Positions 27,714 through 46,618 of a stretch of DNA of 64,000 nt are shown piece after piece. The stretch's first letter is position 1, and each line of letters starts with the position of its first letter. Under the pieces are notes generated by a model, which did not search any database, was not told the DNA's origin, and saw only the letters and a program-made list of their open reading frames with translations. The stretch is from a virus. Where the stretch lies: IMG/VR virus record IMGVR_UViG_3300008113_000108, positions 57,418-121,417 of that record. One strand, written 5' to 3'. The position numbers and the translations under genes are program-made.

Positions 27714-28793
27714 ATGACTGCAACTCTCGCTCAACAGCGTGGGAGCAACACTTGGGAACAATTCTGCGAGTGGGTGACTTCCACCAATAACCGTCTATAC
27801 GTCGGTTGGTTCGGAACTCTAATGATTCCAACACTTCTCGCTGCTACTATCTGTTTCATTGTTGCTTTCATTGCTGCTCCTCCTGTCGATATCGACGGTA
27901 TCCGTGAGCCTGTTTCTGGCTCACTCATGTATGGAAACAACATCATCTCTGGTGCTGTTGTTCCTTCTAGCAATGCTATCGGCCTGCACTTTTACCCCAT
28001 TTGGGAAGCTGCTTCACTTGATGAGTGGCTATATAATGGTGGACCATTTCAACTAATCGTCTTCCATTTTCTAATTGGTATCTATGCTTACATGGGTCGT
28101 GAATGGGAACTATCTTACCGACTGGGTATGCGTCCTTGGATTTGTGTTGCCTACTCTGCACCCGTTGCTGCTGCTAGCGCAGTGTTTCTGGTCTATCCAT
28201 TCGGTCAGGGATCCTTCTCTGATGCGATGCCTCTGGGGATTTCAGGAACTTTCAACTACATGCTTGTTTTCCAGGCAGAACACAACATTCTTATGCACCC
28301 TTTCCATATGCTGGGAGTTGCTGGTGTCTTCGGTGGTTCTCTTTTCTCTGCTATGCACGGATCTCTTGTCACCTCTAGTCTTGTACGTGAGACGACAGAA
28401 ACTGAATCACAGAACTACGGTTACAAGTTCGGACAAGAAGAAGAAACCTACAACATTGTAGCTGCTCATGGTTATTTTGGTCGCCTTATTTTCCAATATG
28501 CTTCCTTCAATAACTCACGTTCACTACACTTCTTCCTTGCTGCTTGGCCTGTAGTTGGCATCTGGTTTGCTGCTCTCGGTGTTAGCACCATGGCATTCAA
28601 CCTCAACGGATTCAACTTCAACCAGTCTCTGCTTGATAGTGGCAACCGTGTCATTCCTACTTGGGCTGACATCCTCAACCGTGCTAACCTTGGTTTTGAA
28701 GTGATGCATGAACGCAACGCTCACAACTTCCCTCTTGACCTTGCCGCTGCTGATATGACCCCTGTGGCACTTACCGCACCAGCTATCGGTTGA
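27714..28793 (+). CDS. psbA: Photosystem II reaction centre protein D1
   Basis: 359 residues, full length and uninterrupted. Redox and manganese-cluster residues are all present: Tyr161, Asp170, Glu189, His190, His332, Glu333, His337, Asp342 and Ala344, plus chlorophyll/quinone ligands His198, His215 and Ser264. Residue 130 is Glu, as in high-light-type cyanobacterial D1 forms, rather than Gln. The C-terminal extension after Ala344 is retained for processing. It replaces fast-turning-over host D1 to keep photosynthesis running during infection. Overlapping early and late promoters precede it, and an HNH nuclease gene follows. No intron is seen. Confidence 0.99.
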
Positions 28794-39176: not shown

Positions 39177-39198
39177 GGGGGCGCAAGCCCCCTTTTTT
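39177..39198. terminator. Terminator of gp32, shared with the convergent tail genes
   Basis: GGGGGC-GCAA-GCCCCC (GNRA tetraloop) flanked by AAA and six T. Works on the plus strand for gp32; on the minus strand it has only TTTAATATT and is weaker. Confidence 0.9.
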
Positions 39199-39833
39199 CA
39201 TGGAGTCTCGGATAATCTAACTCCAGCAGAATCAATCTTGTATTGTGTATCGTAGGCAAATAGAGTTTCAATTTCTTCCTTCATCACGCTCAAGAACTCT
39301 GGCTTGATTAAAAAGATATCTCTTTTCTTTTCGTTTTCTCTGTACTCAAATTCTCTATTAGTTATTCTATCCATGACCATCGCACCGCTCAAATTATTGA
39401 ATGTGAATGATGGATAGTAATTGACGTTTTGTTGTTCAGTTCTACCTTCATTGTATTCAATAATTACTCCTCCTTCAAGAATTACACTATCACCATTATA
39501 GATTGTCTTTGTTTCCCAATATCTAACATTATTTTGAGTATTGCCATACTTCTTTTCAATTGCCAGATCTAACTCATAGTCAGATACTGGCCAGTCATTG
39601 TGAACATCAATGATATTGTTTAGAATTAAAATAGTCCAGTACCATTCTGGAGATCCATAAACTCTATTGGAAATGATTTCTGGAGTTTCTCCTGTCTGAA
39701 TAGTATACCTAGTTGATGCTACATACAGAGCATTTAAGTTGTCTCTAAATCTAACTCTGCGAAATAAATTTTTTGATAACTTAACACCACCTTTATAAGG
39801 ATAATAGAAGTTTGGTTGTGAATCAAAAAACAT
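39198..39833 (-). CDS. 53: Baseplate wedge protein gp53
   Basis: 211 residues (T4 gp53 about 196). The segment YTIQTGETPEIISNRVYGSPEWYWTILILN near 43 is the LysM-like wedge core conserved in gp53. It helps close the baseplate wedges around the hub. On the minus strand directly after gp48 (1 nt apart), sharing its late promoter. Confidence 0.88.
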   Translation of the reverse strand: MFFDSQPNFYYPYKGGVKLSKNLFRRVRFRDNLNALYVASTRYTIQTGETPEIISNRVYGSPEWYWTILILNNIIDVHNDWPVSDYELDLAIEKKYGNTQNNVRYWETKTIYNGDSVILEGGVIIEYNEGRTEQQNVNYYPSFTFNNLSGAMVMDRITNREFEYRENEKKRDIFLIKPEFLSVMKEEIETLFAYDTQYKIDSAGVRLSETP

Positions 39834-39834
39834 T

Positions 39835-40824
39835 TTAGTATCCTCCGTTTTGATCTAAGACATTATCTGCAGTAATGATCTCAGTTTCTGCAAAGCTTAG
39901 ATTCAAATCATACGCAACAGGTGCAGGACCACTTAGCCCATTTCCGTTGGCTAGATGTGTAGCCCATACATTATCTGGTGTATAGTTTACTGATACAGAT
40001 TTGAGTACACAAGGTTTAATTTTTGGTAGTGATTGAATTACTACATCTGAAGTCCCAGCCTTTACCCATCTAAGATCAAATATATTAGGAACAGTTAGCC
40101 ATCTATCACTCAATCTTGCAGTTGATGAAGTGTTCTCAGTTGTTTGTTGAAATCCTCCACTGCTGCTATAGTTTGGAAGTGAGTAGTATCTGAGAGCCTT
40201 GATGATTCTATGAATTCTTGATTGCTCTGAATTGTTTCTAGGAACTAGTTTCCAGGAAAAGTTAAATTCTCTTACTGCGATTCCTTTGAATACTTGTTCA
40301 ACGTAAGGGTTTAAAATTTTTCCGCCAACTCCTTGAGTGAGAAGCTCTGCACTAGGAGCACCAGGAACCTTCTGAAGCTCCTTTAGAAGCACCTCTGGGA
40401 TCCCTCCTGCTGCGAGCTGGGATAGCTGCTGACCAATATTGGATCCCCCCGCTGCCGCTGCTGCAGCCAACGCTGGAGCCATTTTCCCTACGATCCCAGC
40501 ATTATCAGTAGACCAACTTAACTGATCATCAAATTTAATATCATTAGGGATTGGAAGTAATACAGTTGATAGTTTCTTTCTATTTCTTGTAGATGTAACT
40601 CCGTTTGTAATCTGAGTTACTTGATTGACAGATTGAATATTTGACAGCGAAGTTACTTCAGTACCACCAGCTCTGCCCGACTTTGAGATAGGAACATATT
40701 CAAGTATGTCAAGCTTGAGCATATCGACCATACTATTTTTGTCTGGCCAATATAAATCATTTTGAAAGGCATTTTGTGCATAGTCTCCATTCGGATTACT
40801 ATAAGATTTACTTGCTGTTGTCAT
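39835..40824 (-). CDS. 48: Baseplate tail-tube cap protein gp48
   Basis: 329 residues. The N-terminal extension LKLDILEYVPISKSGR precedes an Ala/Gly-rich linker, and the C-terminal tube-like domain reads KGIAVREFNFSWKLVPRNNS, with IIKALRYYSLP near 210. It matches the gp48/gp54 class that nucleates the tail tube on the hub. It is divergent from gp4, with the two starts only 35 nt apart. Confidence 0.82.
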   Translation of the reverse strand: MTTASKSYSNPNGDYAQNAFQNDLYWPDKNSMVDMLKLDILEYVPISKSGRAGGTEVTSLSNIQSVNQVTQITNGVTSTRNRKKLSTVLLPIPNDIKFDDQLSWSTDNAGIVGKMAPALAAAAAAGGSNIGQQLSQLAAGGIPEVLLKELQKVPGAPSAELLTQGVGGKILNPYVEQVFKGIAVREFNFSWKLVPRNNSEQSRIHRIIKALRYYSLPNYSSSGGFQQTTENTSSTARLSDRWLTVPNIFDLRWVKAGTSDVVIQSLPKIKPCVLKSVSVNYTPDNVWATHLANGNGLSGPAPVAYDLNLSFAETEIITADNVLDQNGGY

Positions 40825-41297: not shown

Positions 41298-41854
41298 AAA
41301 GAGAAGTATCGGCTAGGACAAGGAAAGATACAAATCTGAATATATTTCAGCAGGTAGATGCTCTTGTTAAAAATGAGAAGGGATTTGGGACAAAGAGTTA
41401 CAGTTGGTATAAAGAAAATGTCGCAGCAGTAGCTAAGAAAAATGACATTTATAAAACCTTAGTTACTCTGGATGAAACTTTAGTTCCTAGTGGAGGTGTT
41501 TTATATTTGTTTGAGTATAATGCTACATGGGCAAGGAAGCTTCCATATTATGATGAATTTCCATTGGTCTATATGTTGCAAGGTGGAAGAAAATTTTTTG
41601 GAGCAAATCTACATTATCTAAATTATCCTACCAGATACAAAGTATTAAAAAGTATTATAGATGGACGACCAACAATTCCGAAACAGTGTTTTCATAATTA
41701 TGTTTATGAAGGTCTTGAAACACCGCTATTTAAAATAAATAGTGAAGATTGGATGAAATCTATCTTCCTGCCATTGGAAAGTTTTGTCAGCAGGCAAAGA
41801 GGATCATATAAACAAGTAAGTAAATCCTTTGTTTGGGGAGATTCAAAACGATGA
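41294..41854 (+). CDS. Virion assembly protein, possibly DNA end protector gp2
   Basis: 186 residues. The motif YLFEYNATWARKLPYYDEF near 74 and FFGANLHYLNY near 106 is familiar from T4-like tail or head genes. T4 has gene 2 next to gene 4, so gp2 is possible from context, but the length is shorter and I am not certain. Coupled to both neighbours by overlaps. Confidence 0.5.
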   Translation: MKREVSARTRKDTNLNIFQQVDALVKNEKGFGTKSYSWYKENVAAVAKKNDIYKTLVTLDETLVPSGGVLYLFEYNATWARKLPYYDEFPLVYMLQGGRKFFGANLHYLNYPTRYKVLKSIIDGRPTIPKQCFHNYVYEGLETPLFKINSEDWMKSIFLPLESFVSRQRGSYKQVSKSFVWGDSKR

Positions 41855-42681
41855 GTACAATTATAAGTACTGATATTCAAAATTTTAATGACTTTAAATC
41901 CTACGTAGGACGTTATGGATTTTCATTAAATAACTTTTATGACGTGCAATTCCTCTTGGCAAATAATGGCAATAGTTTTCTACAAAGTATTTTTACCAGA
42001 GGTCTAGCTACCAATAGTGGTTCTGGTCAGGGCATATCTACTCTGATGAGACTGTATGCAGATGAGTGTACCATTCCAGGATACTCTATTGCTACAGGAG
42101 ATTTCAGAATTACGAACAGTCCTAACATGAAATATGGTTATGGAATTGTCAACAATGAAATTACGATGTCATTTATATCCGATGCAGATGCAGAAATACG
42201 AAAGACATTTGACTCCTGGGGAAACTTTATTTACTCTAGTGTGTCATCTGCAACGGATCAATCAAACCCATTGAACATTAATTCTACAGATCAATTAGGA
42301 AGAACCAGATATAAAGACGAATACGTTTTGGACATTGCTATCATCAAGCTTGAGAGATATGGAAGTAGTGTTAGAAATTTTGCTAAGAATCCTTTAGATA
42401 GGCTTTCCCCTGGAAGGACAGTTCCTCATTCTAGATTATTCCCTGGAACTGATACTTCAGCTCTTCAGATGGTGAAGTCTGGTTTTGGAGATGCAATTCA
42501 AAAATATTCTATGAGATTGCAGAATTGTTTTCCAACTACTATCTCTGCAATTCCTTTGAATAGTGGGTCTTCACAACTTGTTAAAATTCAAGTTACATTT
42601 GAATATGATCTAGCAGTACCAACATCTCAGACTGGAGGAACTGCAGATGCAACTGGTAAGTGGAAGACTGTTATTGGGTGA
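41851..42681 (+). CDS. Tail-tube initiator-like protein (gp54 or gp19 fold)
   Basis: 276 residues from the ATG at 41851, overlapping the previous stop. The central part (MKYGYGIVNNEITMSFISDA near 97, then FDSWGNFIYS) and the end (QVTFEYDLAV) show the tail-tube fold shared by gp19, gp48 and gp54. By size and position among baseplate genes it is most likely gp54, the tube initiator. Followed by a late motif at 42682. Confidence 0.65.
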   Translation: MSTIISTDIQNFNDFKSYVGRYGFSLNNFYDVQFLLANNGNSFLQSIFTRGLATNSGSGQGISTLMRLYADECTIPGYSIATGDFRITNSPNMKYGYGIVNNEITMSFISDADAEIRKTFDSWGNFIYSSVSSATDQSNPLNINSTDQLGRTRYKDEYVLDIAIIKLERYGSSVRNFAKNPLDRLSPGRTVPHSRLFPGTDTSALQMVKSGFGDAIQKYSMRLQNCFPTTISAIPLNSGSSQLVKIQVTFEYDLAVPTSQTGGTADATGKWKTVIG

Positions 42682-42713: not shown

Positions 42714-43424
42714 ATGCCTTTACCTAAATTAGTTGCGCCGACTTATGAGTTGGAACTTCCTTCAACTAGTCAAAAAATTAAGTATCGTCCATTCCTAGTT
42801 AAAGAAGAAAAAATTCTTCTCCTCGCTATGGAATCTGAAGATGAAAAGCAAATGATCAACGCAGTTCAGACTATTCTCAAGAACTGCATTCAAACTAAAT
42901 TGAAAGTAGAAGATCTTTCTATTTTTGATATTGAATATCTTTTCCTCAACATTCGTGCTAAGTCAGTTGGAGAAGAAATTGAACTGAATATCACTTGTCC
43001 TGATGATGGAGAAACTACTGTTCCTGTAACAATTAATGTTGAGGACATTAAAGTTCAAAAGTCAGATGATCATGAAAAAATTATTGCAATGAATGATTCT
43101 ATTTCCATTACCATGAAATATCCAAGCATGGAAATGTTTGTTCAAAACAACCTATCTGGTAATGTGAAGACTGAAGACATTTTTGAAATTGCTTCTTCTT
43201 GTATTGATCAGGTTGTTGATGGTGAAGAAGTGTATGAAGTCAAGAGCTTCAGCAAAAAAGAAATCAATGAATTCTTGGATAGTCTTGATACAAATCAGTT
43301 CATGAAGATTCAGAAATTCTTTGAGACCATGCCTAAATTAAGTCACACAGTCAATGTGACTAATCCAAACACGAAAAAGGATAACGAAGTTGTTATTGAG
43401 GGTCTTGCATCTTTTTTCGCATAG
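42714..43424 (+). CDS. 26: Baseplate hub protein gp26 (zero-frame product)
   Basis: 236 residues. LPSTSQKIKYRPFLVKEEKILLLAMES near residue 15 and FDIEYLFLNIRAKSVGEE near 75 are characteristic of the T4 gp26-type baseplate chaperone family. It helps assemble the hub. The final codons, ending in Phe-Phe-Ala-stop, contain U UUU UUC, which reads as a -1 slippery site leading into the gp51-like frame. Confidence 0.88.
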   Translation: MPLPKLVAPTYELELPSTSQKIKYRPFLVKEEKILLLAMESEDEKQMINAVQTILKNCIQTKLKVEDLSIFDIEYLFLNIRAKSVGEEIELNITCPDDGETTVPVTINVEDIKVQKSDDHEKIIAMNDSISITMKYPSMEMFVQNNLSGNVKTEDIFEIASSCIDQVVDGEEVYEVKSFSKKEINEFLDSLDTNQFMKIQKFFETMPKLSHTVNVTNPNTKKDNEVVIEGLASFFA

Positions 43425-43446
43425 CTCTAGCACATGAGACGCTAGA
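43412..43446 (+). promoter_or_regulatory. Predicted -1 programmed frameshift signal
   Basis: Slippery heptamer T TTT TTC (43412-43418) in the gp26 frame, a 7-nt spacer GCATAGC containing the zero-frame stop, and a hairpin TCTAGC-ACATGAGAC-GCTAGA (43426-43446). The arrangement matches the standard slippery site / spacer / stimulator layout. Confidence 0.65.
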
Positions 43447-43606
43447 AAATTATTTTCGGATTAACTTTATATTATTGCAGCATCATAAATGGTCACTAAC
43501 TGAAATTGAAACTATGCTTCCATGGGAAAGAGATGTTTATGTTCAGATGTTAATTGATTTTATTGAAGAAGAAAATAATCGAAATAAAACTTCTCAGCCT
43601 CTATAG
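43412..43606 (+). CDS. 51: gp51-like hub assembly domain, reached by frameshift from gp26
   Basis: An open -1 frame of 64 codons reading FFRIALAHETLENYFRINFI and on to NNRNKTSQPL, with WSLTEIETMLPWERDVY matching what I know as cyanophage gp51, the hub assembly catalyst. The frame is closed by TGA about 15 nt upstream and has no ATG, GTG or TTG before the conserved region, so it has no ordinary start. Fusion to gp26 by -1 slippage would give 235 + 62 = 297 residues. Confidence 0.7.
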   Translation, partial: FFRIALAHETLENYFRINFILLQHHKWSLTEIETMLPWERDVYVQMLIDFIEEENNRNKTSQPL

Positions 43607-43609
43607 TAA

Positions 43610-46600
43610 ATGGCAATTTCACTCTTTAGTCTAAAGAAATCTCCTACACAGAAAGTAACTTCTTTCATAGATCCAACTAAGTTTGGTGGGGCAGCTTCTG
43701 GTGGGAGAAAAAGATTACAGAGTGAAGTTGTCGAAGCTAAAATTGCAAATAAAGAAGTAAAAGAATTAGGGTATATCAGAAGAGCACTAGAAACTTTAGT
43801 AAGCATTGAAAAAAGACATTACGATTTAGTAACAGATTCTATTAAACAGTTTGTCCTATCTGAAGAAAAGAGACAAGCTAGAGAAGAAGAGTCCATGCAG
43901 GAATCTTCCAAAGATAAAGAGAAAAATAAAAAGGAAGAAAAAAATCCATTAGTAAGAGAAGGCAAAAAAAGACTTGAAGGATTTGGTGAATTCCTTCAAG
44001 GATTGATGAAGATGTTCATCGGGTATAAAATTTTAGAGTGGGCATCTAAACCAGAGAACGGAAAGAAGATTCAAAATATAATTAACTTCTTTGGAAGACT
44101 GTTTAAATTTATAGGTGTTATCGGAAAAGGAATTGCAATTGCATTTGGAGCAACTCCGATAGGAATAGTTTTAAATAATCTTCCAAAGGCATTTGATCTT
44201 GTAATCAAAGTAATAGGAGGAATTGTAGATTTTCTCACATTCAAATGGATGGGAGAATCTATACAAAATGTTGGAAAATTAATTGGTGATTCGATTAATG
44301 TACTAAAAATTATTCCTGAAAGTATTGGCAAGGTCATTGATTTTGTTACAAATTTAATTCCCAACTTCATTGAAAATGTTTTAACTGAGGGATTGTTTGG
44401 AAGTCAGAAGCAACTACAACAAGAATTAGATCAATCAGAAAAGACTGGAACTGCAACTTCAGGTTCGGACACTGGAGGAGCACCTAATCAACAAACACCT
44501 CAAATAGATTTTGGAAAAGTTTTAGGTGATTCAATTAAAGGAGTTGCAAGTAAAGTTCTAGAGAACGTAATTCCAGGCGGCAAATTTATATCTGATGTTG
44601 GGAAAGGAATCTCAGGATTGTTTGGCGGGGATAAAGATCTTCCTAAGTTAGCCAAGGGTGGCATTGTAACAAAACCAACTGAAGCCATTGTTGGGGAAGC
44701 TGGTCCTGAAGCAATTTTACCATTAGATAAACTAGGGTCATTTGGAATTGCAGACTTCAAAGGAAAAGTTGATAAACAAATTCCTAAGTTCATCAAACTA
44801 TTGACCCTTCCATTTAAAATTATTGGTGCTGGAATTGTAGCGCTCATTTCATCTAGTGTATCAAACATTCCTGGTTTGGGTCCAGTATTGATGCCATTAA
44901 TTTCAAACGTTGCTTCAATGTTTGGCATTCCACCTTCATTAGTCAAGGGAATGTCTAACTTTGCTGCGGCGGCAGTATCTACTGTCGGCAAAGGAATATC
45001 AGGTGCAGCTGAAATCTTTGGATCCAAGGAACCAAAGATTCAAAAGACAGATGAGTTTAAACCATCTGGAGATACATCCGTCAGAGGATTGTTGGGTGAC
45101 ATTTTAACTGCATTGATAAGCAAGAATTCATCCGATACAAAACCTACTCAAACTCCATCAGCTCCTCCTGCGGGAGCATCCCCAGCTCCATCAGCAGCTC
45201 CAACTTCTGGTGCTCCTGCGATGCCACCAAACGCATCTATGGCAAAGCCAGGTGAAGCATCTGTTCAGAACCTAGAAGGAACTGTATCAGATTTACAGAA
45301 GAAAGGATTTAAGTATGTTAATAATACTGCAAATAGATTCTTCCAAGATGAACAGGGAAGATTATATGAGGCAGCTAGGACTGGATCTACTTTAGCTGGT
45401 GCAGATAAATTTAAACTAAAGGCAGTAACTCAAGAACAAATTGATAAAGGATTCACTGCTGCTGGAAGTGAGAGAACTACTGGCAGCAGAAATAATCAAG
45501 AAATTCAAAGACAATTAGAAATGTTCCGAATCATCAATGAAGGAGGAACACTGAGAAAACAAACCACTGGATCTGAAACTCAAGTCAAGCAAGATGGTAA
45601 GTGGCAAAATAAAGCTACTGGTGGAAATATTCATGGGTTTGGGGATGGCGATAAGTATCCAGCATTACTAGAGGCTGGAGAGTACGTTCTAAACAAAAAT
45701 GCTGTTAAAGGAGTTGGGGGACAAAAGTTCCTAGACAAAATTAACTTTGATATGTTCCCAAGATTTGGAAATGATATCTCAAGACTATATGATAATGATA
45801 AGGTAGTTACTAGAACATATGCAAATGGAGGCATTATTGCTGCAGCAAAACAAGCAGTGTCTCAGGGAAAGAGAGGTCCAGCATCTCCTCCATGTGCTTC
45901 ATGGGTTAGAATGGTTCTAGGTATGGCTGGTAGTCCAGCGGCAAATAAAGTTACTGCAAAAGGAGATCTAGATCCAGAGAAGAAAACCTGGGGTCCTAAC
46001 ATGGCAGCTTCATTTGCTGGTAGTGATATGGGTGAAATTATTGGAAGTCAGGGAAATCTTCAGCCAGGTGATGTGGTCTTACATAGAAACACATATGGGA
46101 ATTATCCTGCAGGTGCGGTAACTCACGTATCTATTGCATCTGAAAAGAAAGGTAAAATTTACCATCAACCAACTTCTGGGGCACCACCAACAGAAGGAAG
46201 TATTTGGAACTTTAAAGCAGGTATTAGATTAGGCGGAAGCGGAGGAACACTTCCTACAAGCACTACTTCTGGTGGAGGGGGTGGTGATTCTTCTTCAACT
46301 CCAGATTGGTCATCCATTGGAACTGAACTTGGAAATCTATTTAAAACAATGAATACTCCAGTTCAAGCAGAACCTCAAGAACCTCCTAAAATAACTGCCT
46401 CAGTTCCTGCAACTTCTCAGAGACTACAATCTGCACAAAAGGAAAATGTCAAGATAGAAGCTGAGAAAAGAGTTGCTGGGAAAAAATCTACTGGTAATGT
46501 TGTTACAATTGGCGATCCAAATAGAACTATTACGGAGTCAAATACTAAAGCAATAACTCAACCTTTAGGTGGAACTACTCCTCCAATTCCACTATCTGTC

Positions 46601-46618
46601 TATCCTGTAAACCCATAA
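43610..46618 (+). CDS. Tape-measure-like hub protein with a cysteine peptidase-like domain
   Basis: 1002 residues. The N-terminus (residues 40-110) is coiled coil, and apolar segments follow at about 125-250. GGIVTKPTEAIVGEAGPEAI near 350 is a motif common in tape-measure proteins, and PALLEAGEYVLNKNAV near 680 is a variant. Near residues 755-860, SPPCASWVRMVLGMAG, QPGDVVL and VTHVSIAS look like an NlpC/P60- or CHAP-like Cys/His peptidase. It probably sets tail length and opens peptidoglycan cross-links at entry. The C-terminal module is shared with the next gene. Confidence 0.75.
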   Translation: MAISLFSLKKSPTQKVTSFIDPTKFGGAASGGRKRLQSEVVEAKIANKEVKELGYIRRALETLVSIEKRHYDLVTDSIKQFVLSEEKRQAREEESMQESSKDKEKNKKEEKNPLVREGKKRLEGFGEFLQGLMKMFIGYKILEWASKPENGKKIQNIINFFGRLFKFIGVIGKGIAIAFGATPIGIVLNNLPKAFDLVIKVIGGIVDFLTFKWMGESIQNVGKLIGDSINVLKIIPESIGKVIDFVTNLIPNFIENVLTEGLFGSQKQLQQELDQSEKTGTATSGSDTGGAPNQQTPQIDFGKVLGDSIKGVASKVLENVIPGGKFISDVGKGISGLFGGDKDLPKLAKGGIVTKPTEAIVGEAGPEAILPLDKLGSFGIADFKGKVDKQIPKFIKLLTLPFKIIGAGIVALISSSVSNIPGLGPVLMPLISNVASMFGIPPSLVKGMSNFAAAAVSTVGKGISGAAEIFGSKEPKIQKTDEFKPSGDTSVRGLLGDILTALISKNSSDTKPTQTPSAPPAGASPAPSAAPTSGAPAMPPNASMAKPGEASVQNLEGTVSDLQKKGFKYVNNTANRFFQDEQGRLYEAARTGSTLAGADKFKLKAVTQEQIDKGFTAAGSERTTGSRNNQEIQRQLEMFRIINEGGTLRKQTTGSETQVKQDGKWQNKATGGNIHGFGDGDKYPALLEAGEYVLNKNAVKGVGGQKFLDKINFDMFPRFGNDISRLYDNDKVVTRTYANGGIIAAAKQAVSQGKRGPASPPCASWVRMVLGMAGSPAANKVTAKGDLDPEKKTWGPNMAASFAGSDMGEIIGSQGNLQPGDVVLHRNTYGNYPAGAVTHVSIASEKKGKIYHQPTSGAPPTEGSIWNFKAGIRLGGSGGTLPTSTTSGGGGGDSSSTPDWSSIGTELGNLFKTMNTPVQAEPQEPPKITASVPATSQRLQSAQKENVKIEAEKRVAGKKSTGNVVTIGDPNRTITESNTKAITQPLGGTTPPIPLSVYPVNP

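What the first reader, a model, noticed from the sequence alone, without database searches (positions are those of the whole stretch)
43395..43606. Predicted -1 programmed frameshift fusing gp26 to gp51
Seen: the gp51-like frame has no usable start codon, being closed by TGA about 15 nt before the heptamer. It meets gp26 at T TTT TTC in the correct zero-frame phase, followed after 7 nt by a 6-bp hairpin with a 9-nt loop. Known: many tailed phages make a tail assembly chaperone pair (lambda gpG/gpGT) by -1 slippage. gp26 and gp51 are usually listed as two genes in T4-like phages. Inferred: this phage makes gp26 (236 residues) plus a minor fusion of about 297, so gp26/gp51 may be the T4-like version of the G/GT system.
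Basis: partly seen in the sequence, partly recalled or inferred. Interest (0 to 1): 0.85.

Follow-up and report, generated by a model that had tools for sequence, protein, structure and literature searches.

The report
Frameshifted tail-assembly chaperone in a cyanophage
A phage that infects cyanobacteria very probably makes two versions of one tail-building helper protein from a single gene, by letting some ribosomes slip back one base at a run of six Ts; the trick is conserved and already described for T4-like phages, though this copy had not been annotated.

Summary
gp26 ends ...TCT TTT TTC GCA TAG. T_TTT_TTC at 43412-43418 is in phase, and the -1 frame runs 62 codons on (gp51 domain, phrog_634, E 2e-28) with no ATG before codon 33. 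All 80 IMG/VR relatives plus the window (56 alleles) keep the heptamer at the same place with an open -1 frame. In 74 more distant alleles, 68 keep T_TTT_TTN while the 7th base varies (C/T/A/G, so Phe becomes Leu). The -1 frame is under purifying selection (pN/pS 0.25, against 1.15 and 2.29 in the other frames). Eleven complete relatives, nine with the heptamer, have one such gene. T4 has two: gp26 equals the short form and gp51 the long, fused form.

The hairpin is present but not conserved and no better than chance.

The interpretation (gp26/gp51 = T4-like G/GT) is supported but not new. Vladimirov et al. 2022 (unreadable here) identified T4-like tail assembly chaperones; papers citing it mention short-plus-fused gene pairs and poly-T -1 signals.

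A side result looks newer. In cyanobacterial contractile injection loci, DUF6760 lies in the -1 frame of a tail-assembly-chaperone gene, with G_GGG_GAR at the junction in 35 of 35 loci.

The parts
42714..43424 (+). gp26 / TAC-N (short form, 236 aa), zero frame, stop TAG 43422-43424
   Evidence: PF12322 T4_baseplate E 1e-78, phrog_150 E 4e-85; AlphaFold2 pLDDT 87.6
43412..43418 (+). slippery heptamer T_TTT_TTC
   Evidence: invariant in 81/81 close relatives; T_TTT_TTN in 68 of 74 more distant alleles
43418..43606 (+). -1 frame: gp51 / TAC-C domain (62 codons plus TAG), read as the tail of a 297-aa fusion
   Evidence: phrog_634 E 2e-28 on 43400-43603; pN/pS 0.25; three-helix model, pLDDT 84
43398..43402 (+). 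Shine-Dalgarno-like GAGGG, 9 nt before the heptamer; candidate upstream stimulator (weak)
   Evidence: Group mean anti-SD energy -6.6 vs -5.4 kcal/mol for synonymous recodings (0/300), but the window alone is not unusual (0.39)
43426..43446 (+).
41851..42681 (+). upstream tail tube gene
   Evidence: PF23849 Phage_TTP_2 E 5e-13; phrog_45 tail tube E 7e-28
43610..46618 (+). downstream 1002-aa tail protein, possibly tape-measure-like
   Evidence: weak matches to tape measure PHROGs over short stretches (best 6.6e-7)

Best explanation
This is the tail assembly chaperone locus of a T4-like cyanomyovirus. Most ribosomes translate gp26 (TAC-N, 236 aa) and stop at TAG 43422. A minority slip one base back on U_UUU_UUC (43412-43418), read CGC AUA GCU... 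and make a 297-aa fusion, gp26-gp51 (TAC-NC). By analogy with lambda gpG/gpGT, the short form coats the tape measure protein and the rare long form recruits tail tube subunits; neither would stay in the virion. Shown here: the heptamer, its phase and invariance, the selected -1 frame, the lack of an early start codon, single gene copy, and domain identity with T4 gp26 and gp51. Inferred: that slippage occurs, its efficiency, and the chaperone role.
For: 81/81 sequences keep TTTTTTC exactly 10 nt before the gp26 stop with the -1 frame open to the gp51 end or the contig end; these are 56 alleles, 35 clusters at 90% nt identity and 9 at 75%. The residue before Phe-Phe varies (Ser, Asn, Ala) but its codon always ends in T. 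In 74 further alleles, 68 keep T_TTT_TTN while N is C 27, A 21, T 19 or G 1, so the zero-frame residue changes Phe to Leu but six Ts remain. pN/pS is 0.25 in the -1 frame against 1.15 and 2.29 in the other two, which carry stops in 35/35. The heptamer recurs at the same place in S-SM2, P-SSM5, ValKK3, Aeh1, Mendera and SRB7757 (as TTTTTTC), phiN3 and Melnitz-3 (TTTTTTT) and RHph_I34 (TTTTTTG), and in Cronobacter phage S13. Single PF12322 gene in the window's record and in 11/11 complete relatives; two in T4. T4 gp26 matches only the PF12322 part; T4 gp51 matches PF12322 plus the gp51 tail, so T4 carries the short and long forms as separate genes. T4-type short genes lack the heptamer. PHROG 150 itself extends into the gp51 region.
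Against: No direct evidence of a fusion protein. No conserved downstream structure. VAP7 and K474 lack the heptamer and have a gp51 frame starting on an ATG that overlaps the gp26 stop, so separate translation is possible in some lineages. Of 35 representatives, about two thirds have an ATG within the first few codons after the slip site. The gp26 model has no significant PDB match; the HK97 tail assembly chaperone appears only as a weak hit.
Confidence: 0.93

Rival explanations
1. gp51 is a separate gene, translated by re-initiation or coupled initiation just after the gp26 stop; the T run is incidental.
For: Public records annotate gp51 as its own small gene. VAP7, K474, RHph_I34, ValKK3 and Mendera have an ATG overlapping the gp26 stop by one base; many cyanophages have an ATG a few nt after it.
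Against: In the window's own clade no ATG exists before codon 20-33 of the domain, and in the Melnitz-3-like clade the annotated or visible starts would cut off the conserved FF.IALSH..LE.Y part. It does not explain invariance of six Ts while the zero-frame residue changes, nor the in-frame fusion in T4 gp51.
Confidence: 0.04
2. The fusion arises by RNA polymerase slippage on the T run (a mixed mRNA population) rather than by ribosomal frameshifting.
For: Six to seven Ts can in principle induce transcriptional slippage; a Menderavirus record (L191) has five Ts where its relative L190 has six, which could be slippage, mutation or a sequencing error.
Against: The run is held at T6N in the exact X_XXY_YYZ phase with variable flanks and is not lengthened as expected for polymerase slippage sites (the last point is general knowledge).
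Confidence: 0.02
3. Sequencing or assembly error split one in-frame gene.
For: T runs are error-prone; T4 gp51 is in-frame.
Against: The same split at the same base in 56 distinct alleles from many independent assemblies, in isolate genomes and across several phage families.
Confidence: 0.01

Closest known systems
Tail assembly chaperones of T4-like phages (gp26/gp51; Vladimirov, Gautam & Davidson 2022, Virology 566:9-15)
   Same: Same protein family and short/long logic. Citing papers report short plus fused long genes in some T4-like phages (PMC10885494) and poly-T -1 signals in TAC-N genes of T4-like phages (PMC12846349).
   Different: The paper itself could not be read, so whether this cyanophage clade was included is unknown. 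This copy is unannotated and lies in an uncultivated virus.
Lambda gpG/gpGT (-1 frameshift, tail assembly chaperone)
   Same: Gene after the tail tube gene, 3'-terminal slippery heptamer, short protein plus rare C-terminally extended form; neither product in mature virions (lambda: PMC5009743).
   Different: Lambda uses GGGAAAG (general knowledge); here U_UUU_UUC. Fold similarity to the HK97 chaperone is only weak.
Tail assembly chaperone of Vandenendeviridae/Andersonviridae (Pseudomonas phage Adele, PMC12846349)
   Same: -1 frameshift at a conserved poly-T motif (GTTTTT) at the end of TAC-N, -1 frame open throughout.
   Different: Different slip motif and chaperone lineage.
T4 gp26 and gp51 themselves
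   Same: PF12322 in both; gp51 also carries the gp51 tail domain.
   Different: Two separate genes, on opposite strands in T4; the short gene has no heptamer. In RB43 a long gene is directly followed by an overlapping short downstream gene.

Membership tests
T4_baseplate / gp26 family (PF12322, phrog_150) | Full-length profile match above cut-off | tested here: met
   264 bits vs cut-off 24.5; 2-219 of 219
gp51 family (phrog_634) | Profile match of the -1 frame | tested here: met
   E 2.1e-28, profile 55-116 of 121
[quoted passage not shown]
Frameshifted tail assembly chaperone (G/GT type) | -1 frame under selection as protein and lacking its own start | tested here: met
   pN/pS 0.25; no ATG before codon 33 in the window; some relatives do have an early ATG
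Frameshifted tail assembly chaperone (G/GT type) | Lies between tail tube gene and tape measure gene | tested here: inconclusive
   Tube gene upstream is clear; downstream 1002- and 958-aa proteins, the first with only weak tape-measure matches
Frameshifted tail assembly chaperone (G/GT type) | Chaperone fold (HK97 gp13-like) | tested here: inconclusive
   Foldseek: no match with E <= 0.001; 2ob9 (HK97 chaperone) probability 0.28 over 62 columns and 3fgx rmsd 1.9 over 51 columns are weak
Frameshifted tail assembly chaperone (G/GT type) | Both products made at a fixed ratio; needed for assembly, absent from virion | not testable with these tools
   Needs proteomics or genetics
-1 frameshift with downstream stem-loop stimulator | Conserved structure 5-9 nt after the heptamer | tested here: not met
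   Hairpin present in the window but pairs broken in many relatives, z -0.89

The most novel reading that the evidence does not exclude
The gp26/gp51 frameshift is one branch of a wider chaperone system that also serves contractile injection systems encoded in bacterial chromosomes. In cyanobacteria a ~120-aa tail-assembly-chaperone gene (phrog_508, E 1.7e-7 for the two copies tested) is followed in the -1 frame by DUF6760, a remote relative of the gp51 domain (profile-profile E 4.7e-5), with a G_GGG_GAR slip site in 35 of 35 loci. Other cyanobacterial loci encode an in-frame fused gp26-gp51-like gene. So phages and injection machines have used three solutions for the short/long pair: frameshift, duplication, and a fused gene.
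Probability: 0.7. Interest if true: 0.62.

Novelty: new member of a known kind. Interest (0 to 1): 0.42.

Why it matters
[quoted passage not shown] Reading them as the short and long forms of one chaperone explains why both exist and how cyanophages manage with one gene. It also corrects annotation: most of the cyanophage and relative records inspected carry a truncated 'gp51', a 'hypothetical protein' or nothing in this stretch. The injection-system counterpart, if confirmed, would extend programmed frameshifting to a widespread chromosomal nanomachine.

Tried and rejected
Downstream hairpin as conserved stimulator: tested by pair counting, consensus folding and shuffles; not supported. Rfam: nothing near the site. 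Upstream SD-like stimulator: group mean stronger than synonymous recodings, but relatives are not independent and the window alone is unremarkable. Profile search of IMG/VR with a cross-family alignment failed for lack of conserved stretches. PDB sequence searches gave no relatives. Foldseek of the gp51 domain gave nothing useful. Tree of 21 chaperones: T4 gp26 and gp51 have very long branches and their place is unresolved, so the timing of a duplication is not claimed. gp26 relatives in prokaryote genomes by pattern search: none.

Full report
What is there. gp26 occupies 42714-43424 (236 aa) and ends TCT TTT TTC GCA TAG. The heptamer T_TTT_TTC lies at 43412-43418 in the phase needed for tandem -1 slippage. 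The -1 frame is closed by TGA at 43397-43399 and then open to TAG 43604-43606, giving a fusion of 235 + 62 = 297 residues. Its first ATG comes at 43514, halfway through the domain. gp26 is PF12322/phrog_150; the -1 frame is phrog_634 ('baseplate hub assembly catalyst', gp51) and also matches the C-terminal end of the phrog_150 profile, so some members of that family are fused. The window lies in a 121,417-base IMG/VR record with a single PF12322 gene. It carries psbA (359-aa ORF at 27714-28793, relatives in cyanobacteria at 85-92% identity), a tail tube gene upstream and large tail proteins downstream.

Is it more than chance? Yes. In about 12,400 codons of the listed + strand genes only three in-phase T_TTT_TTN heptamers occur. 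Two meet a -1 stop at once; only the gp26 one extends past its gene. Among 80 IMG/VR relatives (56-86% identity), all keep TTTTTTC exactly 10 nt before the stop with the -1 frame open. They make 56 alleles including the window, 35 clusters at 90% nucleotide identity and 9 at 75%. The chance that an x-Phe-Phe site is written T_TTT_TTC is about 0.08 per lineage from codon use in these genes; even nine independent lineages would make this very unlikely.

The strongest argument comes from more distant relatives. A second set of 74 distinct alleles, most related to Methylophilales phage Melnitz-3, has TTTTTTC 27 times, TTTTTTA 21, TTTTTTT 19 and TTTTTTG once. The zero-frame residue thus changes between Phe and Leu while six Ts persist: selection acts on slipperiness, not on the amino acid. 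The six without it are four T4-type short genes, VAP7, and a Menderavirus record with one T fewer than its relative. Isolate genomes from several families carry it too: S-SM2, P-SSM5, ValKK3, Aeh1, Mendera, SRB7757 (TTTTTTC), phiN3 and Melnitz-3 (TTTTTTT), RHph_I34 (TTTTTTG), and Cronobacter phage S13.

Selection on the -1 frame. Among 11 members of the window's clade, pN/pS is 0.25 in the -1 frame, against 1.15 and 2.29 in the other two, which carry stops in all 35 cluster representatives.

The stimulator. RNAalifold predicts a different, weak structure with no compensatory change. A GAGGG 9 nt upstream could act as an internal Shine-Dalgarno stimulator as in dnaX (general knowledge); support is suggestive only.

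T4 explains the logic. Searching complete genomes for PF12322 gives one gene in each of 11 relatives, of which nine have the heptamer, and two in T4. T4 gp26 matches the PF12322 domain and stops at its end. T4 gp51 matches the same domain (E 4e-52) and continues into the gp51 tail; phrog_150 aligns over residues 3-248. T4 therefore encodes the short and long forms separately, and its short gene has no heptamer. In RB43 a long gene is followed by an overlapping short downstream gene; I did not scan that second gene against PF12322. A tree does not resolve when this arose, because T4 branches are very long.

Alternatives. Some phages (VAP7, K474) have no heptamer and a gp51 frame starting at an ATG that overlaps the gp26 stop; these may use coupled translation. 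About two thirds of the 35 cluster representatives have an ATG within a few codons of the slip site. In the window's clade this is not available.

Prior work. [quoted passage not shown] The PRFect paper cites it for T4-like phages that carry one short and one fused long gene. The phage Adele paper cites it for poly-T -1 signals in TAC-N genes of T4-like phages. The general idea is therefore published; I cannot say whether this cyanophage clade was included.

Structure. AlphaFold2 gives a confident gp26 model (pLDDT 87.6) and a three-helix gp51 domain (84.3). Foldseek finds other gp26 proteins but no significant PDB match; the HK97 chaperone 2ob9 is only a weak hit. The chaperone assignment rests on gene logic and prior work more than on fold.

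A wider lead. The -1 domain weakly matched DUF6760. I therefore looked at DUF6760 in cyanobacterial genomes. In 35 of 36 loci read (one was truncated) it lies in the -1 frame of a short upstream gene, with G_GGG_GAR in phase at the junction. The codon before GGG always ends in G although it encodes Ala, Ser, Val, Leu, Met or Glu; 20 of 35 have no ATG, GTG or TTG in the first 16 codons of the -1 frame. Two of the upstream proteins were tested and match phrog_508 'tail assembly chaperone' (E about 1.7e-7). DUF6760 and the gp51 domain align by profile-profile comparison (E 4.7e-5, probability 68). The genes sit behind sheath- and tube-like ORFs in several of these loci, judged by eye. Other cyanobacterial loci have an in-frame fused PF12322 protein with a gp51-like end. 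The two papers in the library that mention both contractile injection and ribosomal frameshifting are reviews of phage tails, judged by title and abstract. The loci are related to one another, so 35 is not 35 independent events.

Verdict. The finding is real and its interpretation very probably right. As biology of T4-like phages it is a new member of a known kind. The injection-system counterpart is the part a specialist would find new.

Noticed in passing
L284-L298, L300-L319 (cyanobacterial genomes; DUF6760 at about 1501 of each locus): DUF6760 lies in the -1 frame of a tail-assembly-chaperone-like gene with G_GGG_GAR at the junction in 35/35 loci, with no canonical start codon in the first 16 codons in 20 of them: candidate -1 frameshift in contractile injection systems.
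   Followed up: partly
L278-L282: PF12322 genes in cyanobacterial contractile-tail loci are single ORFs of about 240 aa that already end in a gp51-like tail (..EAEILAMSPYRRQLYLEMV): an in-frame fused long form, no frameshift needed.
   Followed up: partly
L090 2240-2420 (Vibrio phage VAP7), L091 2220-2405 (Vibrio phage K474): No T6 heptamer; gp51-like frame starts at an ATG overlapping the gp26 stop. May have replaced frameshifting by coupled translation.
   Followed up: partly
L088 2218-2383 (Aeh1), L320 2170-2332 (Cronobacter phage S13): gp51 frame left unannotated between gp26 and the next gene in public records.
   Followed up: yes
L191 2225-2300 versus L190: One Menderavirus record has five Ts at the slip site where its relative has six; mutation or homopolymer sequencing error.
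   Followed up: partly
L321 2501-3794 (RB43): Long gp51-type gene directly followed by an overlapping short downstream gene, perhaps a tandem long/short pair; the second gene was not scanned against PF12322.
   Followed up: no
window 39198-40824, - strand: Two genes on the minus strand (329 and 211 aa) interrupt the + strand tail region; they look like baseplate proteins by eye, not checked.
   Followed up: no
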